A stretch of DNA of 64,000 nt from Xestospongia bergquistia. Taxonomy: Eukaryota; Porifera; Demospongiae; Haplosclerida; Petrosiidae. The notes under the pieces were generated by a model. It saw only the letters and a list, made by a program, of their open reading frames with translations, did no database searches and was not told where the DNA came from. The position numbers were made by a program, and so were the translations under genes. Where the stretch lies: NCBI GenBank assembly GCA_963965975.1, contig OZ014415.1, positions 7,073,001 through 7,137,000 of the forward strand. The letters are read 5' to 3'. This document shows positions 19,214 through 63,989 of this stretch, in pieces (positions within the stretch are counted from its first letter, which is position 1; the number at the start of each line of letters is the position of its first letter).

Positions 19214-19796
19214 ATGTCTGAGAGTACAACATTTGATTCAGATCCATTTGCTCAAGGCCAATTTCGATATGCTTATAAAGGGAATCAGACTAATCCACCT
19301 TCTAAAGCAGGTCAGCTTTGTGTCATCAAGAAGTTTAAAGACTCTTACACCTATTTTAGTAACTTATAATGTTAAGTCAGACCATTTATTCAGGAAACTT
19401 AATTATTCCATCATAGATGTTTACTGTAGCTAACCATGAGGGGGTGTGGTTTACATTTAGCAGTACAGTCAGTGCAAAGGGGTTAAACAAATTGGCAGCA
19501 TGACAGATCCTGTCCATTAACAGAATATGGAGTTATAAATACTGAAATTGAGGGTATGGCCATGTTCTTTTTAGTTCATGGATGTTCTGATATATGTAGA
19601 GGCCTTCCTAAACTAACATTGGCACAATTTGTTGGTAAGATACCTGATGATGTGATGCAACAAGCATTGGCATTTCAACGGTTGTCAGTATACGTAAGAG
19701 GAACAACATATAGTAATGAGATGAAATTTTCAGATGAAATAAAGCAGACTAACTCTTGTTCCAGTTTTTACTTCAATTGCTCAAGGTTGGCGTTAA
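19214..19796 (+). pseudogene. alpha-kinase copy 2, internally rearranged
   Basis: The start (MSESTTFDSDPFAQG, 19214) through KKFKDSYTY matches copy 1. At 19353 the coding sequence is replaced by ~120 bp that resemble the upstream block (29600-29750: the AACTTAATTATTCCA and GGTTTACATTTA segments). Kinase sequence resumes near 19477 (GGGGTTAAACAAA) with a small deletion, and the C-lobe (MAMFFLVHGCSDICRGLPK) runs to the stop at 19794. About half the domain is missing, so it is not functional. Confidence 0.85.
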
Positions 19797-19979
19797 GAAA
19801 ACTACCAACTTTACAAAAAATTTTCTTAATGTTTTCATAGTTGTTAAATTGTCTTGTTGATGCAACATTAGACTAACTCTAAGTAATTATGTATTATTTT
19901 GTAATTATATCTGATTTTTAGAGAAATAATTTGAAATACCTTTCCATGGCTGCTATTTTCTATTCTACCAATAGACACT

Positions 19980-20145
19980 CAAACAAAATCTTGGTGAGAC
20001 TTACTTTATAAAAGATACCTGTCATTGCAAGAATATTCAAGTAATTTTAATTTGAACTATTTCAATAAGTAGACCAAAAACTAAATGTAAAAATGCCATG
20101 CTTCTATCCTTTAAAGCATGATGACAACCAAAGAGGGTGCAGTGC
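19980..20145 (-). pseudogene. strongly decayed receptor TM3-TM4 scrap
   Basis: Words such as AAACAAAATCTTGGTGAGA, GAATATTCAAGTAATT and AAAATGCCATGCTTCTATCC keep the order and spacing found in the TM3/intracellular-loop region of the minus-strand receptors (21950-22130). The same scrap follows the kinase copy at 52038 (52890-53085), so it is part of the duplicated unit. Confidence 0.55.
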
Positions 20146-20213
20146 ACATGTACGTCACTATTAAAATTGATTGGTTGATTTAACCATTTTTATGATTATA
20201 CAGGTTGCATGTT

Positions 20214-20302
20214 AAGTCAACATCATACTGTTCTCATTCCTAATATACTATTAGATTGACTATAATAGTACATTAGGAATGAAAACAGTATGGTGTTGAC
20301 TT
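20214..20302. repeat. 89-bp palindrome (~38-bp arms)
   Basis: Arms begin AAGTCAACATCATACTGTT and end AACAGTATGGTGTTGACTT around a short TTAGATTGACTA centre. An 89-bp copy lies at 53146-53234 and a single arm at 26942-26980. In each case the same ~800 bp of receptor 3' flank follows. Confidence 0.85.
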
Positions 20303-20763
20303 TTTACATAAAATAATATGCTATGTACATGCAAGTGATGTAACCTGTATAAGTAAAAATGATTGGTTGATTTAACCAATGTATGGCTATACAGGTTCTG
20401 TGTAGCATGTTATTAGATACAAAAATTAGGGATAATACTGTTTGATGTACTACATAATTGATTGTTATATACTTACGTATATGACTATAAAAATTAGAGT
20501 GCTTTTTAAACTATTTGCATGATTAAGTACAGTTACTGAGTATGCCAACATAATGAACCATATCATGCTGTACTAGAGCTTGTTTATATTTGACCACATG
20601 ACTACATGTTAGTTCAGTTAAAATAGCATCTATCTCCCACTCGTAGCTTTAAGTATTGACCAATTAACTACAAAGACTACTTTCAGGTTACTAATTGGCA
20701 CACTTACTGAATTACACTCAATATATTGCGATGTACATCATGTTATTGAAACAATGACAACTT

Positions 20764-21015
20764 TAGAGTGGGTTATATTGTGGGTTACAGTAGGTCACAA
20801 TGGGCTATAGTAGGTTACAATATGTTACAGTTTGCTACAGTAGGTTACAGTGGGTCACAGCAGGCTACAATAGGTTATGGATATGGTAGGTTACAGTAGG
20901 TTAAAGTAGGTTGGGATGTATTAAAGTGGGTTACATTTGGTTACAGTGGGTTACAGTGGATTACATATGTAGTAGGTTTTAGGGGTTACAATGAGTATTG
21001 CAATTTACTGCCATC
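20764..21015 (+). repeat. GGTTACAGT minisatellite in receptor 3' flank
   Basis: Imperfect ~9-10 bp units (GGGTTACAGT, AGGTTACAGT and variants). Related tracts occur at 27535-27715, 38448-38520, 43222-43330, 53798-54065, 57560-57760 and 62860-63170, each on the 3' side of a minus-strand receptor or relic. Confidence 0.85.
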
Positions 21016-21275
21016 TATATATATAGATAGTTTACTCCACTGTAAGTTATCAGTGTAATACAGTACTGTAACCTACTTTAACCCTGTCATGTCTATAATG
21101 TCCTCTTGTAAAATTATATTTTCTGCAGGGATTCCATAGGTACTTCAACAACAATGATATGTTTATCTTTGTATCTGAGATACAAAGTGCCTTGTTGCAA
21201 TCACAGTGAGTATACATGTACAGGTACATGGAGCCAGCAAACTAAGATGATTGTTATGACATATAGCAGCAACTG

Positions 21276-21281
21276 TTTATT
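21276..21281 (-). terminator. poly(A) signal of receptor 3
   Basis: AATAAA on the minus strand, 150 bp after the stop. The same signal sits at the matching place after the other minus-strand receptors (31347-31352, 38865-38870, 48126-48131). Confidence 0.6.
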
Positions 21282-21430
21282 AAAGGTCACACAATTCTAA
21301 ATTACAAGTAATATGGATCAGCTTAAAAAAACAAAAAATTTAGTTAAGGGTGCCACAAAAAAAACTACAATAAGGTTATGTCAGCAAAGAAACAAATCAT
21401 AAACATTTATAGAATAGTGGTAAAGAAACA

Positions 21431-24094
21431 TTATTCAGGCTGTGTTGGCAGTTCAGAAGTTGTTGTTTTCGCAAGAGACAAAGATGTACTTTTAGCTGCT
21501 GTACTTGCACTTTTTACATTTTGACTTGGCCAAACTATCATTATAAAGACTCGTGGACCAAACAGACATACTAGAACAGCTAAAGCACTTAATTGAATAG
21601 CTAATGATATCACGGCTGGTTGAAACTGAGGATCAGTAGCAAAATATGTTATGATGAATGCTATCCACACAAGACCCAGTGAAAATGTAGAAAATGCTAC
21701 ATATCTTGATTCATTAAAGTTCTCAGGAAATCGAATTGTCAAAACAGCTAGTCCATTACTTGCAATCATTAGAGCAGATAAGTACAGCATTTGTATAGCC
21801 AATACTTCAATATGAGGTGTGGTACATTGGAGAGCAAGTGTTGGAAAGTCATTTGTATCCTGTGTATTATTTACTTGATTTTTCACAACACCAGGATGGA
21901 CAACAATTAGAGATATTAGTTCCAAAACCATTTGAATTCCTACCAATAGAAATGTAAACAAAATCTGATGCATTGGGGAAATAAACCTGGGTCTAGAAGT
22001 AATGTTTTTCTGTAAAAATATTCGAGCAATTCGAACAAGTTTAATGAATACAGCACAGACAATTAATGAAAAGCAAAACCATGCTCCTATCCTTTGAAGA
22101 GTACAGACACCCACTGAGGGTTTTGGCATAAATACAACTGTTATTAGAAAACAAAGAGCTATTCCACTTAGAAGAAGTGCCATTTGTTCTCGTCCTGATG
22201 ACTTTACAATTGGTGTGTTCCAGAAATATATGAAGACTCCACTCACAAATATTACGGCTAATAATCCTATTATAGCTAATAATATTAGTACAATAGACCA
22301 TCCATCAGAAGGCTTAAGATATGACTCTCCAATATCTACACAACTTGTACTACCATTAAGAGGGTTATTTCCCCACATATATTGAGGACAGGTTTGACAT
22401 TCTGTTGAAGTAGAGTTAATGTAATTTTGTCCAAGACAAGGATCACAGGTAACACAACAAGATGATACCACATCACGCTTGATAAATCCAGGACCACAAA
22501 CTTGACATTGAGAGATGACTTTATAATTAATATCACTTGATTCATTAAGACCAAACTGTTTGGAGACATTTGCATAAAAATGAAGACGTTTTCCTGATGC
22601 ACTTCCATCCCAGTAGCCAATATTTACTATGTCAAAAATATTACGACAATTTTTGCATGATATTACTTGGTAGTTATGAATTCCATATTTGGCTTTAACA
22701 TTACCCTCTTCATCAAACTTTATTTGATTTCCAGTTGGACTTGAAAAATTAAGATTTTTGATGTATTGTAATAGATTTTCACCATTAAACTCTAATGTTT
22801 GTCCAAGACATGTTTGGTTCTGGGGATACCATACTAACGGTTGTTGGCAGTTATCATTTAAAAAGTTATTGATTGCATGTGCTACACTATATACAGCATC
22901 AATAACAAGTGGATCAAAAGAATCTTGTTGATAATTGGGATCATCTGCAATACTTCTATTAGTACAATTAACGTTAATATTACACTTATAATAGCGCTCA
23001 TAAAAATCAGTAAACCAAGGATTGCGTAAGTTAGTTGCTGGAGTAAGTTGTGAGTAGTAGTCATCAAAAGAATGTACTTTTTCAGCATACGGTGCTATCC
23101 CCCATTTTCCTATAGTAATATCTGAAAAATCTGTAATTTCTGACCAAGCATCACTTGCAATCCACAAGAATCGCCTTTTTGAAACACCAGAGGTGTACAA
23201 CCTTTGAACTTCTTTTAAGACACTTTTAACATGATTAATAGAGGCAAATAAAACAACAACATTAGCAGAAGAATTGATTAATTTATTAGCCAATGCTGTG
23301 TAGTTAGATAATGTATAACTATCCTCAATCCCTTCATTAATATCAATGCATAAACCATTACTTTGAGCTAGACGATGAAACTCATCAATACCAGGTCGAC
23401 CATACAAATTATTTGAATATATAGTTGAGACATGGTCCCAACCAAAATATATTATTAAGTCAATCATTGCTTGAGCTTGTTGATCATCAGGAGGAATTGT
23501 ACGATAAAAGTAAGTGTAACGATCACGATTGCTTAAAATTGGAGATGTTGATGAGAAACTGATTTGAGGCATATTGAATACACGAAAGAAGCTAGCAACT
23601 GGAATAGACACATAACTAACTATGGCTCCAATAACAGCCACTACTGGAAGTTTAGTTGAACTCAAATCTGAGTCAAGACAACTTTCAAGTTCTAAACGAC
23701 CACTTGAAAGCACAAGGTCAACACTCTCATCAAGAGCTATATTTTCACTTATACAAGTGTCCCTGATATCATAACCAAGTGTTATATTAGGTAAAATGTG
23801 AGGGTCATTGTTGACAAGATCTATTGCAAAAAACATGGCTTCCATATTTTCTACACTCTTGTGTAGCAAAATCTCACCACATTTTCCACCACTTGAATTA
23901 GCTTCATGTGAATGTACTCGTAGTAACCCACCTAAAATGATGTCTTTATCTTCAAGATCTTGTATGCCACTTATTCTAGTACCTCCATCAGCTCTAAGAA
24001 CAGGTACAGAAGTGTTATAATGATATTGAGCTGCACATTTGGTAAGCAAAAGAAACTGGAAGAACACAACAAGAAAAGCAAGAGTCCACTTCAT
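21431..24094 (-). CDS. mGluR-like class C GPCR (receptor 3)
   Basis: An 887-residue single-exon receptor starting MKWTLAFLVV; an in-frame GTG lies 18 bp upstream, but the ATG at 24094 heads the signal peptide shared by all copies. Order: signal peptide, Venus-flytrap domain (~55-490), nine-cysteine linker (SQCQVC, CCVTCDPC, CQTCP), 7TM_3 and a tail ending ELPTQPE. The amino-acid backbone contacts are kept (VIGAIVS, FSSTS, PPDD, NLYG, SDAW), but the Arg78 equivalent is Asn (KSVENMEAM) and the Lys409 equivalent is Phe (QDSFDPLV), so a side-chain carboxylate would not be held as in mGluRs. A broken alpha-kinase faces its 3' end 1.6 kb away. Confidence 0.95.
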   Translation of the reverse strand: MKWTLAFLVVFFQFLLLTKCAAQYHYNTSVPVLRADGGTRISGIQDLEDKDIILGGLLRVHSHEANSSGGKCGEILLHKSVENMEAMFFAIDLVNNDPHILPNITLGYDIRDTCISENIALDESVDLVLSSGRLELESCLDSDLSSTKLPVVAVIGAIVSYVSIPVASFFRVFNMPQISFSSTSPILSNRDRYTYFYRTIPPDDQQAQAMIDLIIYFGWDHVSTIYSNNLYGRPGIDEFHRLAQSNGLCIDINEGIEDSYTLSNYTALANKLINSSANVVVLFASINHVKSVLKEVQRLYTSGVSKRRFLWIASDAWSEITDFSDITIGKWGIAPYAEKVHSFDDYYSQLTPATNLRNPWFTDFYERYYKCNINVNCTNRSIADDPNYQQDSFDPLVIDAVYSVAHAINNFLNDNCQQPLVWYPQNQTCLGQTLEFNGENLLQYIKNLNFSSPTGNQIKFDEEGNVKAKYGIHNYQVISCKNCRNIFDIVNIGYWDGSASGKRLHFYANVSKQFGLNESSDINYKVISQCQVCGPGFIKRDVVSSCCVTCDPCLGQNYINSTSTECQTCPQYMWGNNPLNGSTSCVDIGESYLKPSDGWSIVLILLAIIGLLAVIFVSGVFIYFWNTPIVKSSGREQMALLLSGIALCFLITVVFMPKPSVGVCTLQRIGAWFCFSLIVCAVFIKLVRIARIFLQKNITSRPRFISPMHQILFTFLLVGIQMVLELISLIVVHPGVVKNQVNNTQDTNDFPTLALQCTTPHIEVLAIQMLYLSALMIASNGLAVLTIRFPENFNESRYVAFSTFSLGLVWIAFIITYFATDPQFQPAVISLAIQLSALAVLVCLFGPRVFIMIVWPSQNVKSASTAAKSTSLSLAKTTTSELPTQPE

Positions 24095-24142
24095 GTTAAT
24101 TACTCTGTTCACTTGGTGTCAAGTGAGATTGCGTGCTTTATG

Positions 24143-24150
24143 CTTATATA
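24143..24150 (-). promoter_or_regulatory. TATA box of receptor 3
   Basis: TATATAAG on the minus strand, about 50 bp before the ATG. Related TATA-like boxes in similar context occur at 42112-42119 and 60894-60901, and a box in a different context at about 50989-50999. Confidence 0.55.
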
Positions 24151-26215: not shown

Positions 26216-26217
26216 TG

Positions 26218-27744: not shown

Positions 27745-30516
27745 GACAAGCAATCATTAGATTCTGTATTGTTCTTGTTCATTTTTTTTATTGATTTTCA
27801 TTATCTAGTTTAGGATGGATTTCAAATGGCCTGGATTGATAAGTACTCTACATGCAACAATTACTGGGGTCAATAATTTAATGTTGACAATAAAGAATTT
27901 ATCATTAACTAGAGTGACAAATAGCATAGTTTGCCCTCCTGGTAAAAGGATGTTTAAAATCAATGGTATCATTATCATATTCTTTTCTAATTGCTTATTA
28001 CATTAAAGCTAATGAGCATTTTATAACATGAATATGTACAATTTGCACAATGTTTGTGTTATTATAATGTATAGGTACATGTATATACAAGCTTTTAATT
28101 ATGTTTAATGTATGTTAACAGAGTATTTAGTGCATATGAAGCCAACTCTCACTAAATGAAACAACGTTAGCATGCTCACACTATAGTCTCACAACAAAAT
28201 TAAGATAATTACAAAATGAGTTACATGATACTATTAGCAGTTGATGTATGTAAGGTATGTGATTATTTATCATCAAAATTCAGTAATTTTGGGATTAAAT
28301 GTCTCAGTGGTTGTGTTTGTTGGAGGGTGATTCTCACTTGGTGTATGGAATGACTTATTTGTAGGACTACTAGGAGTTGCAGTAGTAGTTGTCAACACAT
28401 TTTGATCTGGCTTGAATATGTGTGTATTCAATTCAGCCACAAAAATAATGAAATGCACTAAAGTGCTTAACCTCGCTGCGGTCATATCCAGACACTTCCT
28501 CAAATGACGTAATCCACATGATGTGCAAGATGATTATTGATGACTACAGTACAGTACAGAAGTTTTGCTACCATCCACTGTAGTTTGGTGGGTACCAGTG
28601 CCTTGTTTGCCGAGTTAAAGCAGTTCAAAGCCATTTGCCCTGGTAACAGACACACACACACACATATTGTTTACAGATAATAATATAATTGAGTTAATGT
28701 AAATTTAGTTTCTGCATCTTTGTCTTGAAAGAAGGTAATGTATAATTTCAATATCTTTAAAAAAAATTATACATAGCAGTAATATTATGATGATATTGAA
28801 CTTATAACATTATGGCTAATTTTTGACATATCTCTATTAAAGTTTATATCCACAACTACAAATATAAAATATATATATATAGTATATATACAAATAAAAT
28901 ATTTACTAATTCATTATTGCTGATGTATAAGAAGTAAATAAACAAACAGGCTTATGGTAGAATATAGGTCAGTTTAAATAACTCAACAGTTGAGTAATTT
29001 TATTAGAGTAATCATACATGCCTAATGATCAAAATATGGAGTTACTAGGCAATTTCATCAAAGAAACTCTGACTTCCATTTTAATGTATGGCTGTATGAT
29101 CAACCAGGATGTTACAAATTATGATGTAATGTATGAATAAGTAATAAACATTACAACTGTGTGTAACCAATTATGAGAAGTTAAGTTACAACAGTCAGTA
29201 AAGTGACACCCCTTTAGCTCAATCCAGACCTATACACAGATTGAGCAAGATCAATGAAGGTAATCATCTCAAGTTCACATTTTATGAGGTAACTATATAT
29301 AATATAATATATATTGGGTGAATGAACTTATATATTCTATACATCACAGCATATACTATAGTACTACTTTCAATTTAGATCTAGTTTTAATTTCTGTAAA
29401 GCTCATTTCTCTTATTAACTATTTCTTTCCATAAAATTGTAAACAGAACAATATTGTTTTCAACCACTCTAAATTTTACATGTGTAATGTACATGTACTA
29501 TGATGGATGTGACAATTTGACACTGTTTGAAAGAATAGTGCAAACTAACGAAACTACAACATATCACTCCAATAGTGAGAATATAGATGTAGATATGTAT
29601 ATTGCCATTATAGTAACTTGTTCTGTTAAATCAGACTCTTCATTAAGGAAACTCAATTATTCCACTATAGAGATTTATCATTGTAGCTAGTATATAAATG
29701 GGTGTTGTTTACATTTAACATAGGGCAAGATAACCATTACAGTCAGTATTTGGATTGCTTTTTCATGTAATCTTTTCCTTAGCATCACAAGCTAAAATAG
29801 TAAAATAATATACATGTTACTATTTTAGGGATAATTTATGATATAATCCTATGAACAGTGACATACATGATTTAGTAAATGAATATAGAAACACCAAAAT
29901 ATACTGATACAATAGATGCCATAAAATGGATGCATAGAAGATAATGGACAAATAATACCCATCCACTCACCTTAATTATTAGAAGCAATGTACTTGCCTA
30001 ATAAAACTTAAATAGGGAATGTCCCTAAATTATCTTTACTAACAAATACAATTATCATGGAATGATGATAAACAGTAAATAAAAACAAAAATCATTGTGA
30101 GAGTAATAGTTAACTTCTATATCTGTCTGAGCTGAACATTAAAGGGCCAACTAAAGGATTTTAATAAGTTTTATAATAATCAAATAATATTATCTGTACT
30201 TTATGTGAAAATAATGGCATTGATCCCTTCATATGATGGAAAGAAAACTATTGTCAATACTTTTATACATTAATCAAACAATAATTACTTTAGGATATGA
30301 ATGAATGAAGTCATTCCAATTAGTAGCAACCATACCAGTAATAACCCTCATAGCGCCCCTGTCATTATGAAAATGTTATTCTATGATGGTTCCTTATACA
30401 TCATCAGCACCACGTCATAATAATGTGCATGCATGCTATGTTTACTCAAAGTTATTACAGTTGGGGGAGTATATATATGTTAGAAACTTGCTGTGTCAAG
30501 CAAAGAATAAGTCATT
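27745..30516 (+). other. kinase copy 3 upstream block with inserted receptor-tail region
   Basis: Bases 27745-28060 and 29690-30516 match 14990-16189. The intervening ~1.6 kb is absent at 15 kb and holds a receptor tail relic (28268-28440), a CA microsatellite (28650-28662) and AT-rich DNA resembling 36440-36600 and 43000-43200. No gene. Confidence 0.65.
28268..28440 (-). pseudogene. C-terminal tail relic of a lost receptor subfamily
   Basis: The minus-strand frame gives FKPDQNVLTTTTATPSSPT and a Thr/Ser/Pro-rich end TNTTTETFNPKITEFDDK, which resembles the start of receptor tails (WPSQNV, then Ser/Thr-rich). Related pieces at 35890-36055, 36230-36300 and 47475-47570 share the same tail, which none of the intact receptors in the window carries. 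Confidence 0.5.
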
Positions 30517-31263
30517 ATGTCTGAGAATACAACATTTGATTCAGACTCATTTGCTCAATGCCAATTTTGATATGCTTATAAAGGAAATTGGACTAATCCA
30601 CCCTCTAAAGCAGGTCAGCTTTGTGTCATCAAGAAGTTTAAAGATTCTTACACCTGGCAGAGAACAGGATGGGACACTACAATGAAAATATATTCAAAAG
30701 CTCAAGAATATGCAAATAATTTTTATGGAGGAAGAGTTGAGGTTACCAATTGCAATGTTCATGCAGTAACAAAAAGTGCAAATGCTCCTAGAGGAACAAG
30801 ACTAGGGGAATATGTTGTTGCTAAAAAGTATCTTGAAGGGGATTTCAAGAAGTGGTGTAATAATTATGGTTACATATCAAAGGAAACAAGAGGGGAAGAC
30901 TACATTTTGCCATCCTTTATGCATTGGAGTTGGATTCGTAGTAAAGGTCAAGAAATGGTGGGCGACTTACAAGGGGTTAAACAAAGTGGCAGTATGTATA
31001 AGTTAACAGATCCTGCTATAATGTCCATTAACAGAGAATATGGAGTTACAGATACTGGAATTGAGGGTATGGCCATGTTCTTTTTAGTTCATGGATGTTC
31101 TGATATCTGTAGAGGCCTTCCTAAACCAACATTAGCACAATTTGTTGGTAAGATACCTGATGATGTGATGCAACAAGCACTGGCATTTCAACAGCTGTCA
31201 ACAAGAGGAACAACATATAGTCATGAGATGAAATTTTCAGATCCTGAGATAACAAGGCCATGA
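30517..31263 (+). pseudogene. alpha-kinase copy 3, one nonsense codon and a replaced C-terminus
   Basis: Starts MSENTTFDSDSFAQCQF. The Arg codon of the RYAYKGNW segment is TGA (30568-30570). After it the frame is open through LCVIKKFK, GEYVVAKKYLEGDF, LPSFMHWSW, GDLQGV, LTDPAI and HGCSDIC to MKFSD. The last ~20 residues found in the other copies (EIKQAL...) are absent, because the DNA passes at 31243 into receptor 3' flank (CAGATCCTGAGATAACAAGG) and stops at 31261. An internal ATG at 30682 would give 193 residues lacking the N-lobe. It ends only 239 bp from the stop of the receptor at 31502, in convergent orientation. Confidence 0.88.
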
Positions 31264-31501
31264 CGCAATTATCATCACAGTGAGTAATACATGTATATGT
31301 AGCCTGTAAGCTAAGATAATTATTATAACAGATATAGCAACAACTTTTTATTAAAAGTCACACAACTCTAAATTACAAGTCATATGTATCAGCTTTAAAA
31401 GGTAAAATAAAAATTAAGGGAGTAACAAAATAAGCTACATTAAGATTATGTCAGTAAAGTAACCAAGACATAAACATTTACTGAATTGTGGTAAAGTAAT
31501 A

Positions 31502-34168: not shown

Positions 34169-35889
34169 CTTAAGTCTTTTCTCTTTATGACATAAAAGTG
34201 GTTTAGTCTTTTATGTTTAGTTATCTTGTTATGATTTTTTTAAAATACTTTAAATGTAGACTCTGCTCATTGTAAACATATTGATTCATTTAACTAATAT
34301 AATATTACATGATGTTGATGTTAATTAATGTTATTAATGTTGCATGATGCAAACTGAAAGTAAAATAATTCTATTTTGATGACTATTGTCCTATCAAATC
34401 AAATTAATTTATCAATATTTTCTTTAAAATATCATTGCTAAGTTTCAATATTTTGTAAACAATTTACATCATGTCATCTATAAATCCAAACATTTATTTT
34501 AATCAAGAGTAATCAGTTTTTCAGTGGAAATGATAGTATATATATTTTGATATAGAAAATTTGCTGTTTATCAATATGAATAGTGTCAGTTTTTCTCACA
34601 TGTATTTGGCATACTTAAAGTAAATAGCCAACTTTTGACCATATATAGCAGCAATATATAATAGAAGTTGATCTCACTGATATTGCCTTTATATATGGAG
34701 GTTTTTTACAGTCATGGGAGTTAGAACATCTGCATATCTGAGGAGTTACATAACATACATGTGACATGTCGTATACATATTTTGGAACTTGTATTATGAA
34801 TGACATTCTTGTAGGAAAGCATTGTACAATAATAAAAATAATCTAGCAATTAAATATGTTTTGGTACTAATAATCCTGCATGAACATTATTCACACATTT
34901 ATAGTTTTTTTCTCATGTGGATATTAAAAAAAGCTGGCGATCAACAAATAATGAAAACATAACATAGATTTTTGCCAATGTTCTTTTATAATATAACACG
35001 GTACTGTCAGCATTGCATGTAATGCTGACAGTAGTGTTTTTCAGTCTAATTTCTAAACTGTTTATTTAACTAATTAATTAAATAGGCCAGATCCCTTGTG
35101 CATGAAAGTAGTTATATGTGATGCAAATTCCATCTCCATAAACAAAGCAGCTAATATCACTCTTAAGTATACTTAATAAAGTATTAAGAAGCACAATTAT
35201 TCATTTATGTAGTCAGTTAATGGATTATTCTCTGATATGTGGATCACAGGTATATACAGATCCCACCATTCTACACAAATATCCTCTCATTATACAGTAA
35301 AAACATTTATATATTACAGTATATAAGTGGTTAAAGTATTTGGAGGTTTGGCTCTTCGATATCTATTACTACCAGTATAAACATATTTAGCATTCTTTTG
35401 AAAAGATACTGTTAGAAACAACATTAATTGGTCATAAACTACATACAACATAGATTCTAACATTTCTATCACAGGATGTTGTTTTCTGGCTTTTTAAACT
35501 TTCATTATGGAGTTTTGTGTTATTCAACATTCCTCCTGACATTATTTTGGCAATTAATGTATTTCCTATATTAGAGGACTACATTATGATAATGGTAAAG
35601 ACATGATTTGGGCACACTTCAATTTTATGATTGACTTAAAACTCCTGGTGGACAAGTCATGTTGAAGAATGAAAATGAATATATTAATTGTATATTTCAC
35701 AATAGCAGTATAAACATGCTTTTCAAAAAATGTAATGTTGTAACAAAGTAATTATATATTGCATTTAAAAGTAAATTCTCATTAAATAAAACAAAAGCAA
35801 TATTATATCATGTTATTGTTATAAAAAAATTAAGATATTGGTAATTAAAGAATATGAGCTACATGATAGTAGCAGTTGATGTATGTAAG
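34169..35889. other. receptor 4 upstream DNA
   Basis: Non-coding. Bases 34580-34930 match the shared receptor upstream block (as at 24280-24640). A small perfect hairpin (ACTGTCAGCATT, GCATGT, AATGCTGACAGT) lies at 35003-35032. The remainder is AT-rich with no supported feature. Confidence 0.6.
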
Positions 35890-36380
35890 GTATAGCATTA
35901 TCATCAAGATTATATGTCACCACAGTTGCATTTGTTGAAGAGGGATTCTCATTTGTATGTTGAGTGACTTATTTGTAGGACCACTAGGAGTTACAATAGG
36001 GGTTGTCAGAACATTTTAATCAGGACAGAATATCATTATAAAGATGCGCATGTGTAAGCAAGCTTTATATTATATTTAATGTATGTTAACAAAGTATTTA
36101 TTGCATATGAAGGTCAATTATCCCTAAAAAAAAGAAGAAAAACAATGCTAGTAGAGTAGTGTTAAAACAAAAGTAAGATAGCAACAATTACAACAAAATG
36201 TGTTATATGATAGCAGCAATTGGTGTATGATTATTTATCATCAAATTCAGTAACTGGTAGATTAAGTGTCACAGCAGTCATGTTCATTGGACAGAGACAA
36301 TTATCAACTAATTTAGTAAGCAGAACTTAAACAATTATTGAAAAAAGCAATGTTCATATCCTTTTAAGAGCTTTTAGCCT
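35890..36380 (-). pseudogene. fragments of a lost receptor subfamily (tail and TM3 scrap)
   Basis: Bases 35890-36055 on the minus strand read RIFIMIFCPD followed by a stop and NVLTTPIVTPSGPTNKSL, that is the end of TM7 plus a tail of the 28268-28440 type. Bases 36230-36300 repeat the last part of that tail. Bases 36310-36380 resemble the TM3 region (AACAATTATTGAAAAAAGC, CATATCCTTTTAAGAG). All are decayed. Confidence 0.5.
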
Positions 36381-36654
36381 GTAAAAATAAAGATATGACA
36401 ATAACATGTTATACACACTATACACTGACCCATTATTGCTAAAGTATGAGTAATAAACAAATAAACAGACACATGGTATAATATAACAAGATCATTACTT
36501 ACAGCTGAAATAGTTCAAACAGTTAATTTTTTTTATTAGTTTTATATGTCTTAATCTGATGAACCAGTCTGTGGTTATTATATAACCACTATGTAATCAA
36601 AAAACTAATACTTCTCTCACTCTCATCTATTATATATTATATCTAACTACATTA

Positions 36655-36747
36655 AGGTTATGTCAGCAAAGTATCAAAACAAAAGTATTTACTGAATTGT
36701 GGTAAAACACATTATTCAGGGTGGTTGGGTGTTCAGTAGCAAAGTTC
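36655..36747 (-). pseudogene. receptor 3'-end scrap fused to kinase fragment
   Basis: Contains the conserved 3' UTR words (TTATGTCAGCAAAGTA, TTTACTGAATTGTGGTAAA) and last codons (CATTATTCAGGGTGGTTGG). At 36747 it joins alpha-kinase coding sequence directly. Confidence 0.8.
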
Positions 36748-41682: not shown

Positions 41683-41735
41683 TTTAAACACTTTGTTAAC
41701 TTGTTGTCGTAAAAGTAATTAGAAGATGGTGTGAT

Positions 41736-44603: not shown

Positions 44604-44651
<48 letters not shown>

Positions 44652-44664
44652 TTACGTATACATA

Positions 44665-44692: not shown

Positions 44693-44695
<3 letters not shown>

Positions 44696-47440: not shown

Positions 47441-47474
47441 GATAGCATCAGTTGATGTATGTATAAGGTAAGTG

Positions 47475-50947: not shown

Positions 50948-52037
50948 ATTAAACACTCGATCTGTTTACTTGAAAATGTAAAAGTAAAGGTATATATAGT
51001 TTGATGATTTATATTCAGATATCCTGTTATGATTTACTTTTAAAAAAACTACTTTGTATACTGCCTCTACAAACTGTAAACATATTATGGTTATATAAAC
51101 AGCACCATGGTATGGCTATACAAACATGGACATATAACCACGTCATAAGAATGTGCATGTTATGTTTACTAATACTACAGTTTCCATTGCCTAATGGAGT
51201 AGAATTTTGTTGTGTCATCATGTCAGTATAATACATATTATATATATGGGCTAGTTGAACAAGAATGAGAAAGTACGCCAGGAATTAAACTTGACTTAAT
51301 TTTCAAACATTGAGCTGTATATAAAGGACTGTCAATTGATATCAGGATAATAAAGTATTATGTATCAAAGTAATTTCATGCATTTTTTTGTAATTGTTTG
51401 CTTAAAAACTGCTGACTTGCTTATAATGGTTTTGTAGTTTTCTATAGGAAACTAAATACAGATTTAAAGCCTTGAGAAAATATCATAATCACTTCAAAAC
51501 TTGATGTTTTTATGTGCAAGAAAATGAGATAAGTACATGATCATTTGAATGATTCTTTACATCTAGCTGTTTAAATAGACTAATTGTATTATCAATTAAC
51601 TATTGTCTCAACAGACTTCCTGTAACTCCCACACGATCATGACTATTTCAGTGATAGAAATGAGCATTGTTAGTATTTGTTCCATATATAGTAATAATAA
51701 TGATCATGGTTAGTATTTGTTCCACATATAGTAATAGTAATGATCATGGTTAGTATTTGTTCTATATAGTAATAGTAATGATCATGGTTAGTATTGATCC
51801 ATACAGTAATAGTAATTGTTCCATACTTGTATGCAAGATAGTAGTGTCATTTTCTATTGTTCCAATTAATATCCTATCACATCCTGCTTATGTACACTCA
51901 TACTCTATTTAGTGCATGCATATGCCATTATCTAGAAAGAAGTAGACAGTTTTGGTCTGTGATTAACTTAATTTCATAAAATGTTTATTATTTTCAACAT
52001 GATGATGATGATGATGTCCTATGGTCCTTTAAATTAG
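50948..52037. other. receptor 6 upstream DNA, kinase upstream flank and short minisatellite
   Basis: Bases 51110-51630 match 17790-18330. Bases 51650-51830 hold ~4 units of the 40-bp minisatellite. Bases 51830-51880 match 18966-19010. A GATGAT run lies near 52000. No gene. Confidence 0.75.
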
Positions 52038-52718
52038 CCTTGTGTCATCAAGAAGTTTAAAGATTCTTACACCTGGGAGAAAACAGGATGGGACACTACA
52101 ATGAAAATATATTCAAAACCTCAAGAATATGCAAATAATTTCCGTGGAGGAAGAGTTGAGGTTACTAGGTGCGATGTTTATGTTGTAACAGAAAGTACAA
52201 ATGCTCCTAGAGGAGTGCAACTAGGTGAATATGTTGTTGCTGAAAAGTATCTTGAAGGGGATTTCAAGAAGTGGTGTAATAATTATGGCTACATATCAAA
52301 GGAAGCAAGAGGGGAAGACTATATTTTGCCATCCTTTATGCATTGGAGTTGGATTCATAGTAAAGGTCAAGAAATGATGGGTGACTTACAAGGGGTTAAA
52401 GAAAGTGGCAGCATGTATAAGTTAACAGATCCTGCTATGATGTCCGTAAACAGAGAATATGGAATTACAGATACTGGAATTGAGGGTATGGCCATGTTCT
52501 TTTTAGTTCATGGATGTTCTGATATCTGTAGAGGCCTTCCTAAACCAACATTGGCACAATTTGTTGGTAAGATACCTGACAATATGATGCAACAAGCACT
52601 GGCATTACAACAGCTGTCAGCAAGAGGAACAACATATAGTCATGAGATGAAATTTTCAGATGAAATAAAGCAGGCTTTTGTTCCAGTTTTTACTTCAATT
52701 GCTCAAGGTCGGCGTTAA
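52038..52718 (+). pseudogene. alpha-kinase copy 5, 5'-truncated but otherwise open
   Basis: The frame is open from CVIKKFKDSYTW (just after an in-frame TAG at 52035) to the stop at 52716, 226 codons. It keeps GEYVVAEKYLEGDF, LPSFMHWSW, GDLQGV, LTDPAMMS, TDTGIEGMAMFF and the HGCSDIC zinc motif. The first ~37 residues, including the RFRYAYKG strand, are absent, replaced by unrelated DNA. An internal ATG at 52101 could give 205 residues without the ATP-binding strands, so catalysis is unlikely unless an upstream exon supplies them. It is the best-preserved C-lobe in the window. Confidence 0.82.
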
Positions 52719-54503
52719 GAAAACTTTACAACTTTACTCAAAATTTTCCTAATGTTTTCATAGTTGGCAAATTGTCTTGTTGTATGCAACATTTGACTAG
52801 CTCCAAATCCAAGTAATTATATATTATTTTTATAATTATGCTTGATATTTAAAGAAAAATAATTTGAAATAGTCTTCTGTGGCTGCCATTCTAGAAATTC
52901 AAGCAAAATCTGTCAGATACACTTAGGACATACTGTATAAAGAGATTATTTGTCATTGAAAAAATATTCAAGTAATATAATTTGAACTATTTGAATAAAT
53001 AGACCACAGACAATAGATGTAAAAATGCCATGCTCCTATCCTATCCTTTGAAGAGTACAGACAACCAAAGAGGGTACATACATATGTCACTATAGAAATT
53101 GATTAGTTGATTTAACCATCATTATGACTCTGCAGGTTGCATGTTAAGTTAACGTCATACTGTTCCCATTCCTAATATACTATTAGATTGACTATAATAG
53201 TACATTAGGAATGAAAACAGTGTGGTGTTGACTTTGTGCATAAAATAATATGCTATGCACATGCAAGTGATGTAACCTGTATAACCAACCATACAAAATA
53301 ATCAATCAATTAACCAATTTACAGTATATACATATACATGACTGTTATTACACTATAAAATTAAAATTGATTGGTTTATTTAACCAATATATGGTTATAC
53401 AAGTTGCATATAGCAGAGCTATTATATACAGAGAGTAAGGATAATACTGTTTGATGTACTACAGAATTGACTGTTCATGTAGTTATATATGTACATATAT
53501 CACTATAAAAATTAATGTGTTTATAAACTATTTGCATGATTAAGTACAGTTACAGAGTATGCCAACATAATCAACCATATAATGCTGTACCAGAGCTTGT
53601 TTATATGTGACCACATGACTACATGTTAGTTCAGTTTAAATAGCATCTATCTCCCACTCACAGCTTGAATTATTGAGCAATCAACTACAAAGACTACTTT
53701 TGGGTTTCTAATTGGGTTCAAATAATTACGTACACTAGTTTTCACTTTGTAGCAAGTCAGTATTGGGATGCACATCGTATTATGGAAACAATGATAACTT
53801 TATAGTGGGTTATACAGTAGGTTATGTGTACAGTAGATCACAGTGGGTCACAGTAGGTTACAGTAGGTTAGTATGAGCTACAGTAGATTATGGGTATGGT
53901 AGGTTATAGTAGGTGAAAGTAGATTACAGTGAGCTAAAGTAGGCTAGGATGTATTAAAGTGGAGTATGCATGCAATGGGTTAAAGTGGGTTACAGTAGGT
54001 TACAGTAAGTTACAGTGTGTTTCAATGGGTTAAATATGTAGTAGGTTATATAGTTGGTTACAATGAGTATTGCAATCTACTACCATCTATATATATAGTT
54101 AGTTTATTACACTGTGTAGGTCATTGTAATACAGTACCGTAACCTACTTTAACTCTGTCATGTGTATTATATGATGTCCTGCATGTAGTAAAATTATACT
54201 TTCTGCATGGGATTCCATAGGTACTTCAACAACAATGATAGGTTTATCTTTGAATACGAGATCACAGTGTCTCATTGCAATCACAGTGAGTATACATGTA
54301 CAGGTACATGTAGCCAGCAAACTAAGATGATTTTATAACAAATATAGCAACAAACGTTTATTAAAAACAACTCTAAATAACAAGTCATATGCATCACCTT
54401 AAAAAACAAAGTTCAATTAAGAGTGCAACAAAAAAAATACAATGAGGTTATGTCAGCAAAGAAGCAAAAACGTAAACATTTACTGAATAGTGATAAAGAA
54501 ACA
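52719..54503. other. kinase/receptor intergenic block
   Basis: Matches 19797-21430 in order: decayed receptor scrap (52890-53085), 89-bp palindrome (53146-53234), ATTGGTTTATTTAACCAAT stretch, TTACAG repeat (53798-54065) and the receptor 3' UTR-like block. No gene. Confidence 0.8.
53146..53234. repeat. 89-bp palindrome, second copy
   Basis: Same arms and centre as 20214-20302 with a few substitutions that mostly keep pairing outside the AAGTTAACG end. Confidence 0.8.
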
Positions 54504-55428
54504 TTATTCAGACTGTGTGGGCAGTTCATAAGCTGTTGTCTTTGCAAGAGACAAAGATGTACTTTTAGCTGCTACACTTTTTTTTTACATTTTGACTAGA
54601 GCAATTCGAACAAGTTTAATGAAAACAGCACAGACAATTAATGAAAAGCAAAACCATGCTCCTATCCTTTGAAGAGTACAGACACCCACAGAAGGTTTAG
54701 GGATAAATATGACTGTTTTAGAAAACAAAGAGCTATTCCAGTTAGTAGTAGTACCATTTGTTCTTGTCCTGATGACTTTATAATGTGTCTGTTCCAGAAA
54801 TATATGTAGACTCCACTCACAAATACTACAGCTAATAATCCAATTAGAGCTAACAATATTAGTACAATAGACCATGCATCAGAAGGTTTAAGATATGACT
54901 CTTCAATATCTACACAACCATTACTACCATTAAGAGGGTTATTACCCCACATGTATTGAGGGCACTTTTGACATTCTTTTGAAAAGGTAATGTGTTAGTG
55001 TAGTTTTGTCCAAGACAAGGGTCACAGATATCACAACAAGTCACAACTTTTCGTTTCATGAGACCAGGCTTACAGCCCCGACACTGTGATTTGAATTGAT
55101 ACACAATATTACATGATTCATCAAGACCAAATTGCTTTGTAGTATTGGGATTAAATCTAAGACGATCATGAAGTAAATTTCCATCCCAATACCCAACATT
55201 TACAATCTCATATGATTTGCTACAATTTTGACATGAAGATACTACTTGGTAATTGTAGATAAGGTATTTAGCTTTTACATCGCTATGCTCATCAAAACTT
55301 ACTTCATTGCCAGTTGGGCTGGTAAAATTGAGCTTTTAATATACTCCAGAAGATTTGAGCCATTAAATGTTCGATTTAATTTGTCCAAGACATGTTTGAT
55401 TGACATGTTTGATTGACAGGGTACCACA
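54504..55428 (-). pseudogene. receptor pseudogene, TM3 fused to tail
   Basis: The last codons (stop 54504-54506) and tail are joined at about 54598 to the TM3/intracellular-loop segment, deleting TM4-TM7. It continues through TM1, the cysteine-rich linker and the end of the ligand-binding domain, with several small indels, then stops at 55428 where LTR-element DNA begins. Its closest relative is receptor 6. Confidence 0.9.
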
Positions 55429-55429
55429 G

Positions 55430-55984
55430 CTCTTCTACCAAACATTAGTTCAAATGGTGTATGTAGAGAGGATACACACTTGGATGTATTATATGCAAAC
55501 ACAAAGGTCTTTAAAAATAAATCGCATTCAGCCTTCTTGTCATTGCCAATTGGTACCACAGAGAATGTGCTGGTATTGGATAAAGCTCATGACAATTGGG
55601 ATTTTGTTCATCCTCTGATATTCATTACCTACATGTGTTGATATAAGACAATACCAAATTTTAAACAAACTTACCACTTCTTTGACATCATTCCATATGC
55701 CTTTCCACATAAATCATTCCCTGATTCATCCTACTGTTTTCTTAAACCCCATATGTCCTGATGTTAGATCAATGTGATGGGATTTCACAATCCTTAATTG
55801 CTCACTTAAAGACTGTATATATTTAACTATCCACAATAGTGCCAACATGCCCAACAACCATTTAAACTTTATTTTACAAATATTTGTCATTTCATCAGCT
55901 TCTCTCTTCCAGATTTGTAGCACAACTCTCCATCAATTATTACAATTTTTGTCTTTTTCTTAATTATTCTTTCCCTAGTTGCAC
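55430..55984 (-). mobile_element. Ty3/gypsy-type integrase fossil
   Basis: On the minus strand two short stretches are recognisable: SGHMGFKKTV (integrase N-terminal zinc-binding region) and AYNTSKCVSSLHTPFELMFG (the end of the catalytic core and its C-terminal side). Order and spacing fit a Ty3/gypsy integrase with most of the core gone. It is broken in several places and no LTRs are seen. It lies between two pieces of one receptor relic and is probably old. Confidence 0.8.
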
Positions 55985-56235
55985 TGTCTCCATACAGTTA
56001 GGGTCAATGTTGACAATATCGATAGCAAACAAGACTGCCTTTAAATTTTCTACAGTCTTGTTTACATAAACCTTGCCACATTTTCCAATACCATCATGTT
56101 TATGTACTATTAGTAACGCACATAAAATGATGTCTTTATCTTTAAGATCTTGTATAGAACTTATTCTAGTACCTTCATCAGCTTTGAGAACTGATGCAGA
56201 AGGAGAACCATAACAATACTGAACTACAAACTCGA
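55985..56235 (-). pseudogene. receptor N-terminal relic beyond the gypsy fossil
   Basis: Resembles the first ~100 codons of the minus-strand receptors (KIGKCGKVYVNKTVENLKAV and IDIVNIDPN-like) but with a weakened start region. Together with 54504-55428 it frames the Ty3/gypsy fossil; the middle of the ligand-binding domain is missing. Confidence 0.8.
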
Positions 56236-56699
56236 TCAGTACTTTAAATACTGACTCTGCTCACAGTAAACATATTGGTTGATTTAACTTATATGATTAT
56301 ACAGGCTGCATAATCTGTACTGAAAGTAAACATGCTTTGATTATTATTGACCTATGGAATTTAAAATTTAATTGTTTAGCACATATTCATGTTTTTTATT
56401 TCTTTAAAAAACATTATTACTTTTAACATTTTGTAAACATTTTACATCATACAGTCTGTATAACCAAAAATTGGTTAAACCAAGTGATCAGTTTTTACAG
56501 TGGAAATAACAGCATATGTTTTTAATATGGACTGATTGGTTATCAATATGTAACAACCACTTAGTGTTGGTTTTACTCATGTGAATTTGTCATACTTAAA
56601 CTCTAATCAGTAACCATATTTTGCCCATATATGGAAGCATGATAATAGATGGTGATCTTAATAATATTGCAATATTGAAGTGTTTTTCTCTTGTTTGTA
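56236..56699. other. receptor upstream block
   Basis: Non-coding and similar to 34240-34640 and 46370-46460 (GTTTTACTCATGTGAATTTG, CCATATATGGAAGC). Confidence 0.6.
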
Positions 56700-61384: not shown

Positions 61385-62440
61385 AGGTTGTGTTGATAGT
61401 TCAATATAGTCGTCATCATTGATCTCTTTGCAAGTGATAAAGATACACTTTTATTTGCTGTACTTGCACTTTTTACATTTTGACTTGAAGTTCTAAAGAA
61501 ACCAAATTGTCAAGACTGCTAGTCCATTACTTACAATCATTAGTGCAGATAAATAACAATTTAATAACAAGTAATGTTGTATAAGGTGTGGTACATTGGA
61601 CAGAAAGTACTGGAAAAGTGTTAGTATTATTCACTCGATTTTTTTATCACACCAGGATGAACAACAAGTAGAGATAATATACTTCCCAACCATTTAAATC
61701 TCAACTCCTACCAATAGAAATGTAAACAAAATCTGATGTATTGGGGAAAAGTAATGTTATTTTGTAAAAATATACAAGCAATTCAAACCAGTTTAATGAA
61801 CACAGCACAGACAATTAGTGAAAAACAAAACCATGTTCCTATCCTTTGAAAAGTACATATAGCCACAGAGGGTTTCATAATAAATACAACTGTTATTAGA
61901 AAACAAAGAGTTATTCCACTCAGAAGTAGTATCATTTGTTCTTGTTCTGATGACTTTACAATTGGTGTGTTACAGAAATATATGAAGACTCCATTCACAA
62001 ATACTACAGCTAATAATCCAATTATAGCTAACAATATTAGTACAATAGACTATAATTTAGAAGGTTTAAGATATGACTCTTCAATATTACTAATGTTATG
62101 AGGGTCATTACCCCACATGTACTGAGAACATATTTCACAATCAGTTGAATAGGTAATATTAGTGTAGTTTTGTCCAAGACAAGGATCACAGGTGCCACAA
62201 CGTTTTAGTTAATAAAGCCGGAGTTACAGCTCTGACATTGTGATTTGAGTTGATACATAATATTATCTGATTCATTGGGACTAAATTGCTTTGTAGTATT
62301 GGGATTAAATTTAAGACAATTTAGTGGCAAATTTCCTTCCTAATAACCAACTTTTACAATCTCAAATGATTTGTTACAATTTAGACAAGAAGATGCCACC
62401 TGGTAATTGTAGATAAGGTATTTAGCTTTGACATCACTAG
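61385..62440 (-). pseudogene. receptor pseudogene, linker through tail
   Basis: Contains the tail, parts of TM5-TM7 (with a large deletion of TM6-TM7), an open 83-codon TM1-TM3 stretch (61783-62034), the cysteine-rich linker (some cysteines lost) and the end of the ligand-binding domain. Many indels. It ends near 62440. Confidence 0.85.
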
Positions 62441-62514
62441 GACTTTTCATAATCCCTTCCCTAAAAGGTCTTTAAATATAACTTTATAGATAAATATCCC
62501 CTGGAATTCAGAAC

Positions 62515-62730
62515 CATCTGTTCAAGACCAAATACAATATGCTTATAAAGGAAAGGGAACTATTCCATCATCTAATGTAGGTCAACCTTGTGTCATCAAA
62601 AAATTTAAAGACTCATAAACCTGGGAGAGCTAGAACAGGCTGGATGGGACATTACAATGAGAATTATTTAAAAGCACAAAAATATGCAAATAATTTCGGT
62701 GGAGGAAGAGTTGAGGTTATCAATTAACAG
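62515..62730 (+). pseudogene. alpha-kinase copy 6, N-lobe scrap
   Basis: Decayed sequence matching QYAYKGK, PCVIKKFKDS and YANNFGGGRVEV of the kinase N-lobe, with a stop in place of the residue after DS and small insertions. The last ~170 residues are missing. The sequence then turns into a small inverted repeat (AACAGTTACTACATAG / CATGTAGTAACTGTT) and the TTACAG repeat. Confidence 0.8.
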
Positions 62731-62859
62731 TTACTACATAGTAACAACATGTAGTAACTGTTAATTGACTTCACATATTGATTTACAATAGTTTTGGGTT
62801 GATAGTAAGTCAGTGTTGGATGTATATCCCATTGATGAAACAACAATAAACTTATAGTG

Positions 62860-63170
62860 GATTACAGTGAGTTACAGATGGTTACAGTGCATTACAGTGG
62901 GTTACAGTGGGTTACATATGCAGTAAGTTACAATGAATTACAGTTGGTCAAAGTAGGTTACATTAGGTCACAGTAGATTACAGTAGATTATAGTGTGTTA
63001 CAGTGGTTACTGTGGGTTACACACGCAGTAAGTTAAAATGCATATTACAGCAATTCAGTGGCTAATATTGGGTTAAAGTTATAGTAGGTTAACATTACTG
63101 TGAACTACATTCAATTACTACAGTAGGTGACTATATTCAATAGGTTATAATGATGGGTTACAATGGGTTA
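62860..63170 (+). repeat. GGTTACAGT minisatellite
   Basis: About 30 imperfect units of GGGTTACAGT/AGGTTACAGT, followed by reverse-complement words (GTAACCT) near 63220, as in the other receptor 3' flanks. Confidence 0.85.
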
Positions 63171-63544
63171 TTGTAATCTATTGCAACCTATAGTACTTTA
63201 CTCCACTGTAAGTCATTGTAATCTAGTACTGTAACCTTGTATTGTGTATGATATCCCAGTATAAAATTATACTTTCTGCTGGGATACTTCAACATCAATG
63301 ATATGTTTAACTTTATACATGTATACCTGAGAGAACAATAACTTGGTGCAATCACAATTAGTATACATGTATATATATACGTATTATAGGCTGCAACAGA
63401 TTACAGCACCTATATTGTAACCTGTATAGCCCAATTATGATCAAATTGAGAATATATGTATACGTAGAAGTAGTCTGCAAGCTAAGACAACCAATTATTA
63501 TGACAAATATAGCAGCAAACATTTATGAGAAGTCACATAACCCT

Positions 63545-63888
63545 CATTACTACCATTAAGAGGGCTATTACCCCACATGTATTGAGGACATACTTGACAT
63601 TCTCTTGTTAAAGAGGTATACTATAGTTAATGTAATTTTGTTCAAGACAGGGGTCACAGGTAACGCAACAAAATGACACCACATGACGTTTGATTAATCA
63701 GGATTACAAACTTGACATTGAGAGATGACTTTATAAATAATATTACCTAATTCATTAAGACCAAATTGTTCGGTGACATCTTCATAAAAATGAAGACGTT
63801 TTCCTGATGAACTTCTATCCCAGTAACCAATATTTACTATGGCGAAACGTTTACTACAATTTTCGCATGATGTTATCTGGTAGTTATG
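63545..63888 (-). pseudogene. receptor cysteine-rich linker fragment
   Basis: Closest to receptor 3 (VISQCQVC, VVSFCCVTCDPC and CQVCPQYMWG-like), with small indels. At about 63888 it joins directly to signal-peptide codons, so the whole ligand-binding domain is deleted. Confidence 0.85.
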
Positions 63889-63989
63889 AGAACAGATTCA
63901 GGAGAAATGCCATAATGATACTGAACTAAACATTCAGTAATCAAAAGAAACTGGGAGAACACAATAAGAAAAAGAAGAGTCCACTTCAT
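63889..63989 (-). pseudogene. receptor signal-peptide end fused to linker
   Basis: ATG at 63989 begins MKWTLLFLIVFSQFLLITEC, followed by ~10 codons that match the start of the mature receptor and then the linker fragment. The upstream region lies outside the window. Confidence 0.85.

What the first reader, a model, noticed from the sequence alone, without database searches (positions are those of the whole stretch)
19214..63989. Recurring convergent pair: alpha-kinase (+) facing mGluR-like receptor (-)
At five places a plus-strand alpha-kinase copy is followed by the 3' end of a minus-strand receptor or receptor relic (19214/21431, 30517/31502, 36748/39019, 52038/54504, 62515/63545). The intergenic DNA shares the same order of parts at the best-preserved sites. 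This two-gene block is the unit that was copied. Linking a class C receptor to an atypical kinase in one amplified unit is not a known arrangement to me. A functional link is only inference; simple hitch-hiking would give the same picture.
Basis: partly seen in the sequence, partly recalled or inferred. Interest (0 to 1): 0.8.

Follow-up and report, generated by a model that had tools for sequence, protein, structure and literature searches.

The report
Decaying kinase passengers in receptor array
Broken copies of one small kinase gene sit between members of a long tandem array of glutamate-receptor-like genes in an animal genome; the repeated kinase-receptor neighbourhood is real but looks like co-copied passengers, not a working gene pair.

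Summary
In detail: all five convergent sites are in the window. Twelve alpha-kinase copies or relics lie within about 87 kb, and 11 of 12 face the 3' end of a minus-strand class C receptor.

(1) Around six kinase loci elsewhere (C2, C13) no class C receptor was found in the stretches searched; in the array 21 of 32 receptor 3' flanks have no directly facing kinase.

(2) The pair was not consistently the copied unit. A colinear duplication carried two whole pairs, but its best-matching part ends between a kinase and its facing receptor: k8 and k12 differ by 0.004, the receptors they face by 0.226. With one site per block, kinase distances do not track facing-receptor distances (r=0.01).

(3) None of 12 kinases has an open full-length frame with all zinc ligands; the one open copy, outside the window, lost a zinc-ligand cysteine and shows no constraint. 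Receptors are constrained (dN/dS 0.23-0.52); 6 of 11 facing receptors keep full frames.

Best reading: a kinase captured by a receptor array, spread by duplication and exchange while functional, now decaying. Interest modest.

The parts
16226..16968 (+). k1: alpha-kinase copy, full length but with a frameshift; faces no receptor (the next element is the k2 relic)
19748..21433 (.). spacer between k2 and receptor r21; homologous along its length to the k5 spacer; holds a 10-bp repeat array (20783-20965)
21431..24118 (-). r21: class C (mGluR-like) receptor in one open frame of 895 codons
30556..31242 (+). k3: alpha-kinase copy with a stop codon near its start and its C-terminus cut near 31242, where the receptor 3' flank is joined on
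31243..31504 (.). 262-bp receptor 3' flank; homologues also lie beside receptors that have no kinase
31502..34189 (-). r31: class C receptor, open frame
36699..37094 (+). k4: alpha-kinase C-terminal half only
39019..41706 (-). r39: class C receptor, open frame
30393..41718 (+). block A (two kinase-receptor pairs); second copy at C5:7154404-7165751, 97.0% identical
48278..50962 (-). r48: open receptor of the same clade with no facing kinase
52038..52718 (+). k5: alpha-kinase copy; the N-terminal segment is replaced by unrelated sequence
52719..54506 (.). k5 spacer, colinear with the k2 spacer (78-82%), with 10-bp repeats
54504..56248 (-). r54: receptor relic, longest open frame 141 aa
58148..60751 (-). 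r58: receptor with a broken frame and no facing kinase
62586..62718 (+). k6: alpha-kinase relic (about 40 codons recognisable)
63549..64000 (-). r63: receptor relic running to the window end

Best explanation
A tandem array of class C receptors, each in one open frame, in an animal that is probably a sponge (recalled, not tested), took in one solo alpha-kinase gene. Its nearest intact relatives in this genome are on C13, at 47-49% amino-acid identity. The array then grew and shuffled by segmental duplication and unequal exchange or conversion. These carried kinase and receptor DNA together, but with breakpoints that often fell between the kinase and the receptor facing it. The kinase was a functional gene for part of this time and has since decayed at all twelve sites, while many receptors remain under selection. 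The convergent pairing is a by-product of where the kinase landed, kept by shared descent and not by joint function. Shown: copy anatomy, block boundaries, discordant distances, lesions and selection contrasts. Inferred: single capture, its direction (C13-like gene into C5), past function from the constraint signal, and present loss of function.
For: Twelve copies lie in one 87-kb stretch, 11 of them facing a receptor 3' end. The receptor 3' flank occurs at receptors without kinase, including one on C4, so it probably predates the kinase. Colinear matches: 20141-74500 against C5:7146705-7176701; block A 97.0%, the next two long pieces 94.6% and 97.7%, the first 4.2 kb 87%, smaller pieces 85-96%; about 22 kb is missing from copy 2. 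k8 and k12 differ by 0.004 while their facing receptors differ by 0.226 (one of them a relic, 1256 bp compared) and their left-hand receptors by 0.044. Mantel, kinase against facing receptor: r=0.01 (55 of 120 permutations as high) with one site per block; r=0.31 (333 of 5000) for eight sites; on seven sites the left-hand receptor does as well, 0.38 (345 of 5040) against 0.37 (279 of 5040). Frames are broken or truncated in k1-k5 and in the fragments. k9 is open, but 13 of 15 changes assigned to its branch with k1 as reference are amino-acid changes, 11 of 12 in the four-way count, including loss of a zinc-ligand Cys. k1-k5 show past constraint, 19 N / 16 S, p=0.0014 against neutral. Receptor dN/dS is 0.23-0.52 over 91 pairs. 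No class C receptor was found beside the six kinases elsewhere in the stretches held.
Against: Kinase copies show past constraint, so kinases were functional while some of the amplification took place, and an earlier working association cannot be excluded. Sites k2 and k5, and largely k8 and k12, keep the kinase-spacer-receptor order, and block A moved two whole pairs. With all eight comparable sites kinase and facing-receptor distances are weakly correlated (r=0.31). The k2-k8 pair goes the other way: receptors (0.064) are closer than kinases (0.083). Single capture is not proven for k4/k10, whose spacer differs, or for k6/k7/k11, whose kinases are 11-21% diverged from the others compared. 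The search for receptors near kinases elsewhere was limited in length and used receptors of the C5 kind, and the family list was capped. One individual's assembly was seen; intact alleles may exist in others.
Confidence: 0.8

Rival explanations
1. The kinase-receptor convergent pair is a functional module (receptor signalling through, or co-regulated with, its neighbour kinase), copied as a unit and only recently failing at the sites.
For: Past constraint on kinase codons (k1-k5 19 N / 16 S); the same order of parts at k2 and k5 and largely at k8 and k12; block A copied with both genes of two pairs.
Against: None of 12 kinase copies has an open full-length frame with all zinc ligands. The copy with least damage and a constrained branch, k1, faces no receptor. 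21 of 32 receptor flanks lack a directly facing kinase, and open frames of at least 820 aa are no commoner at paired than at unpaired receptors (6 of 11 against 16 of 21). Kinase and facing-receptor distances are discordant.
Confidence: 0.07
2. One large recent duplication explains the pairs, with no older repeated copying.
For: The chain of colinear matches 20141-74500 against C5:7146705-7176701 reads as one tandem duplication with an internal deletion; it explains k9, k10, k11 and k12 as copies of k3, k4, k7 and k8.
Against: The sites within copy 1 (k2-k8) have facing receptors 0.06-0.28 apart, most over 0.11, so they were made earlier. The r21/r75 part is 87% against 97% for block A, so it is either an older copy or later altered by conversion.
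Confidence: 0.08
3. Kinases were inserted repeatedly and independently beside receptor 3' ends (a mobile or preferred-site process).
For: In 9 of 10 comparisons kinases are more alike than their facing receptors; spacer types differ at k4/k10 and k3/k9; no intron is seen in the kinase, as in a retrocopy.
Against: Homology continues upstream and downstream of the kinase between sites (for example k1-k9 95% from 615 bp upstream; k2-k5 spacer 78-82% to the receptor), as expected from DNA duplication and not from separate insertions. The C13 kinases also lie in one open frame, so lack of introns may be inherited. No target duplication or poly-A was looked for.
Confidence: 0.05

Closest known systems
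Tandem gene arrays in which a neighbour gene is co-duplicated and then decays (birth-and-death evolution with passenger genes; recalled)
   Same: Segmental copies, unequal exchange or conversion, a mix of intact and broken members, one family maintained while the passenger decays
   Different: The particular neighbours (class C receptor and alpha-kinase) and the convergent orientation
Sponge class C / metabotropic glutamate-like receptors (PMC4302439, passages seen: 33 Glutamate-family members in Amphimedon, only seven of them homologous to GRMs)
   Same: Lineage-specific sets of mGluR-like receptors
   Different: The passages seen describe adjacent genomic clustering for Rhodopsin-type receptors; none mentions a kinase neighbour. 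The species here is not identified
Solo alpha-kinases of this genome on C13 (and kinases on C2 with about 190 residues of open frame before the domain)
   Same: C13: Alpha_kinase of 260 aa in one frame, 47-49% identical to the window copy
   Different: Two of three intact; beside an AAA_11/AAA_12 helicase-like gene and not a receptor
Venus kinase receptors (PMC3703292, seen only as a search listing with the start of its abstract)
   Same: A Venus-flytrap module linked with a kinase
   Different: There one protein with a tyrosine kinase; here two separate genes of which the kinase is an alpha-kinase

Membership tests
Alpha-kinase family (PF02816) | Domain match above the curated cut-off | tested here: met
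   126.9 bits against cut-off 21.3 for window 52038-52715; 15 matches in the genome
Alpha-kinase family (PF02816) | Zinc-module HxCxxxC and DLQG...LTDP segments (roles recalled; aligned to 4kuj and a TRP kinase, 1ia9) | tested here: met
   Present in k1, k3, k4 and k5; k9 and k10 have Tyr for the first Cys
Functional alpha-kinase gene | Intact reading frame over the whole domain under constraint | tested here: not met
   0 of 12 copies: frame broken, truncated or fragmentary in 11; k9 open but zinc ligand lost and no constraint on its branch
Class C GPCR, mGluR-like | Venus-flytrap (ANF_receptor) plus 7tm_3 | tested here: met
   3 of 3 window receptors scanned; mGluR7 is the best solved relative of r21, E 7.9e-134
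Class C GPCR, glutamate-binding | Arg in the binding lobe that holds the distal carboxylate (R78 of mGluR4/7; recalled) | tested here: not met
   r21 has Asn at that aligned position and r31, r39, r48 have His in the same motif by eye; p3 at 3190 keeps Arg. Ligand unknown
Co-copied gene pair as amplification unit | Both genes within each duplicated block, with concordant histories | tested here: not met
   Met for block A, broken at k8/k12, distances uncorrelated with one site per block
Conserved functional linkage | Kinase-receptor linkage at other kinase loci within 3 kb | tested here: inconclusive
   None found at 6 of 6 loci, but flanks held were 1.5 kb or somewhat more for the C2 kinases and under 3 kb on one side of the C13 relic, the queries were five C5 receptors, and one search was capped
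Conserved functional linkage | The same linkage in other species | not tested
   No relatives of this genome are held

The most novel reading that the evidence does not exclude
The solo kinase was a working partner of these receptors (for example a desensitising or downstream kinase encoded tail to tail with its receptor) while the array grew, and its present decay at every site records the recent loss of a receptor-linked signalling step in this lineage; the open k9 copy facing a receptor 262 bp away may still be expressed.
Probability: 0.05. Interest if true: 0.65.

Novelty: new member of a known kind. Interest (0 to 1): 0.25.

Why it matters
It is a clear natural example of how a recurring gene neighbourhood can arise with no functional link: copies share descent, so five or eleven pairs count as about one event. 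The useful tests are comparing the histories of the two partners, finding block edges, and comparing selection on each partner. The array itself (at least 42 class C match rows over about 240 kb of one chromosome) may interest those who study receptor expansions in early-branching animals.

Tried and rejected
Considered and rejected: functional pair; pure one-step duplication; separate insertions (see rivals). A Mantel test on all eight comparable sites gives a weak positive correlation (r=0.31, 333 of 5000 permutations as high), which vanishes when the recent block is collapsed. k1 was left out because it has no facing receptor, and k6, k7, k11 because their kinase pieces do not overlap all the others; the distance table kept only kinase overlaps of at least 120 bp. 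The kinase DNA tree has support of only 0.60-0.77 on several branches and was not used for the argument. Left out of the receptor tree: a partial plus-strand receptor at -1378..508, rm49 (cut by the region edge), relic r45b and short fragments; left out of the flank test: rm44 and rm49, whose flanks run off the region held. Branch counts also gave k3 4 N / 2 S and k5 11 N / 6 S, neither different from neutral; six codons with more than two states were set aside, and the p values are not corrected for several tests. A possible splice link between the C13 helicase-like gene and the kinase behind it was looked at and left open.

Literature: searches. No paper in that library holds 'alpha-kinase' with 'Amphimedon' (0), or 'alpha-kinase', 'metabotropic glutamate receptor' and 'tandem duplication' together (0). 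This is a limited library and wording. Three papers were seen as passages only: PMC4302439, PMC11883242, PMC6307864; PMC3703292 only as a listing.
Full report
SETTING. The window is C5:7073001-7137000 of a 146-Mb genome in 21 contigs. Add 7073000 to a window coordinate to get the C5 position; coordinates above 64000 or below 1 are on the same scale outside the window. The genome is an animal's, probably a sponge's; that is recalled knowledge of such receptor sets, not a test. C5 carries at least 42 class C (7tm_3) match rows between 6.97 and 7.21 Mb, some of them pieces of one gene; only 150 of 298 candidates genome-wide were scored and the listing was cut. I joined the window to 150 kb of flank, C5:7023001-7237000.

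OBSERVATION. tblastn with the 52038 kinase finds 12 places in 214 kb, all plus strand: k1 to 16968, k2 19523-19747, k3 to 31242, k4 36699-37094, k5 52038-52718, k6 62586-62718, k7 67088-67299, k8 73475-73695, k9 81633-82253, k10 87678-88073, k11 96876-97090, k12 102613-102833. The domain profile starts k1 at 16226 and k3 at 30556, and a C13 kinase query adds the k2 piece 19223-19360. In 11 of 12 the next element to the right is the 3' end of a minus-strand receptor or relic, 0.26 to 2.0 kb away. The exception is k1, whose next neighbour is kinase relic k2. Pfam confirms both families. The order and orientation are far from random, but because the copies are related they are not independent.

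WHAT THE SPACERS SHOW. The kinase-to-receptor spacer is alignable along its whole length between k2/r21 and k5/r54, and over all but its first 350-390 bp at k8/r75 and k12/r104. The match of k1, k2, k4, k5 and k10 to k3 stops at 31238-31242, and the next 262 bp at k3 are the receptor 3' flank; k9 aligns with k3 straight through, so these two share one joining event that removed the kinase C-terminus and the rest of the spacer. k4 and k10 keep only the C-terminal half and have a mostly different spacer. The receptor-proximal flank is also found at receptors without kinase, including a plus-strand receptor of the same array and a receptor on C4, so it is probably older than the kinase's arrival. 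Of 32 receptor 3' flanks examined over 3 kb, 11 directly face a kinase; a twelfth, r65, has k6 at 2.8-3.0 kb but with relic r63 between; 20 have none.

WHAT WAS COPIED. Self-comparison shows 30393-41718 against 81404-92751 at 97.0% (two pairs each), 64135-71289 against 93960-101090 at 94.6%, and 71952-74084 against 101089-103224 at 97.7%. Chaining gives one colinear path: 20141-74500 against 73705-103701, the two copies touching, with about 22 kb (42-64 kb) absent from copy 2. I read it as a tandem duplication. Identity is not even along it: the first 4.2 kb (r21 against r75) is 87% and the pieces just before block A 85, 91 and 96%, so the left end was either older or altered later. The 97.7% tract ends about 390 bp beyond k8/k12, inside the spacer. 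Beyond it identity is 93% for the first 0.4 kb and 88% over the rest of the spacer, and the facing receptors r75 and r104 are 77% alike and belong to different clades. k8 and k12 differ by 0.004, their left-hand receptors by 0.044, their facing receptors by 0.226. Here the kinase travelled with the receptor on its other side.

DISCORDANT HISTORIES. Among k2, k3, k4, k5 and k8, kinase distances are 0.037-0.083 while facing-receptor distances are 0.064-0.217; kinases are the closer in 9 of 10 pairs, the exception being k2-k8. Synonymous distances show the same contrast (k3-k4 dS 0.067; r31-r39 dS 0.259). The Mantel correlation is 0.01 (55 of 120 permutations as high) with one site per block, 0.31 (333 of 5000) with eight sites, and on seven sites the left-hand receptor does as well as the facing one (0.38, 345 of 5040, against 0.37, 279 of 5040). 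Kinase relics k6, k7 and k11 are 11-21% diverged from the other types although the receptors facing k7 and k11 are not unusually diverged (0.11-0.12). So kinase stretches were probably exchanged between receptor units, by unequal crossing-over or conversion; I did not separate these two, and stronger constraint on the kinase in the past would add to the contrast.

DECAY AND SELECTION. k1: one frameshift. k2: middle missing. k3: stop near the start, C-terminus cut. k4, k10: N-terminal half missing. k5: N-terminus replaced. k6, k7, k8, k11, k12: fragments. k9, outside the window, is open (250 codons stop to stop), but it shares the C-terminal cut, has Tyr for a Cys of the HxCxxxC zinc motif (ligand assignment recalled; alignment with solved kinases) and Gly for a Trp that k1, k3, k5 and the C13 kinases have. 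Of 15 changes assigned to its branch with k1 as reference, 13 change an amino acid (at one of these k5 has the same state as k9); the four-way count over the shared codons gives 11 N / 1 S. k1 against k5 shows past constraint (19 N / 16 S, p=0.0014 against a neutral share of 0.782), and the k1 branch alone gives 2 N / 5 S (p=0.007); k3 and k5 branches (4 N / 2 S, 11 N / 6 S) do not differ from neutral. These are counts, not codon-model tests. Receptor pairs give dN/dS of 0.23-0.52. Open frames of at least 820 aa are kept by 6 of 11 paired and 16 of 21 unpaired receptors: pairing with a kinase does not go with receptor survival.

KINASES ELSEWHERE. Six other alpha-kinase loci: three on C2 with about 190 residues of open frame before the domain (29-35% identity) and three on C13, two intact at 47-49% and one relic. 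No class C match lies near them in the capped list, and tblastn with five C5-type receptors found none in the stretches held: 1.5 kb either side of five kinases, 10 kb round each of two C13 kinases, 6 kb round the C13 relic and round one C2 kinase. A more distant class C gene, or one further than 1.5 kb from two of the C2 kinases, could have been missed. On C13 the kinases instead follow, on the same strand, a gene with AAA_11/AAA_12 helicase domains (Pfam on one of the three; same layout by sequence in the second intact copy). Ten non-kinase open frames from the C13 loci gave no match in the C5 region.

CONCLUSION. The recurring convergent pair is real, but it is best explained as a passenger kinase in a receptor array: captured probably once, spread by duplication and exchange while functional, now decaying at all twelve sites.

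Noticed in passing
L024:4423-5244 (-) with L024:5631-8512 (-); L025; L026: On C13 two intact solo alpha-kinases lie 461 and 475 bp behind a helicase-like gene (AAA_11/AAA_12) on the same strand and seem to be copied with it; a relic kinase (L026) also lies near helicase-like frames. A splice link or fusion was not excluded.
   Followed up: partly
window 21431-24118, 31502-34189, 39019-41706, 48278-50962: These receptors have Asn (r21) or His (r31, r39, r48) where mGluR2/7 and the receptor at 3190-5829 have the Arg of the glutamate-binding lobe, which suggests a ligand other than glutamate (inference).
   Followed up: partly
window 18331-18962 and 51650-51816: A 40-bp minisatellite lies just upstream of kinases k2 and k5.
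   Followed up: no
window 20783-20965, 38463-38509, 53830-54032, 62852-63021: 10-bp TTACAGTGGG-like arrays recur in receptor 3' flanks, also at receptors without kinase.
   Followed up: partly
window 8360-9870 against 9370-10883: A 1.5-kb tandem duplication at 99.7% identity holding a receptor C-terminal fragment.
   Followed up: no
C5:7154564-7155121 (k9) and C5:7160678-7161073 (k10): Both kinases of block A copy 2 carry the same Cys-to-Tyr change in the zinc motif that their copy-1 partners lack, as local conversion would give.
   Followed up: no
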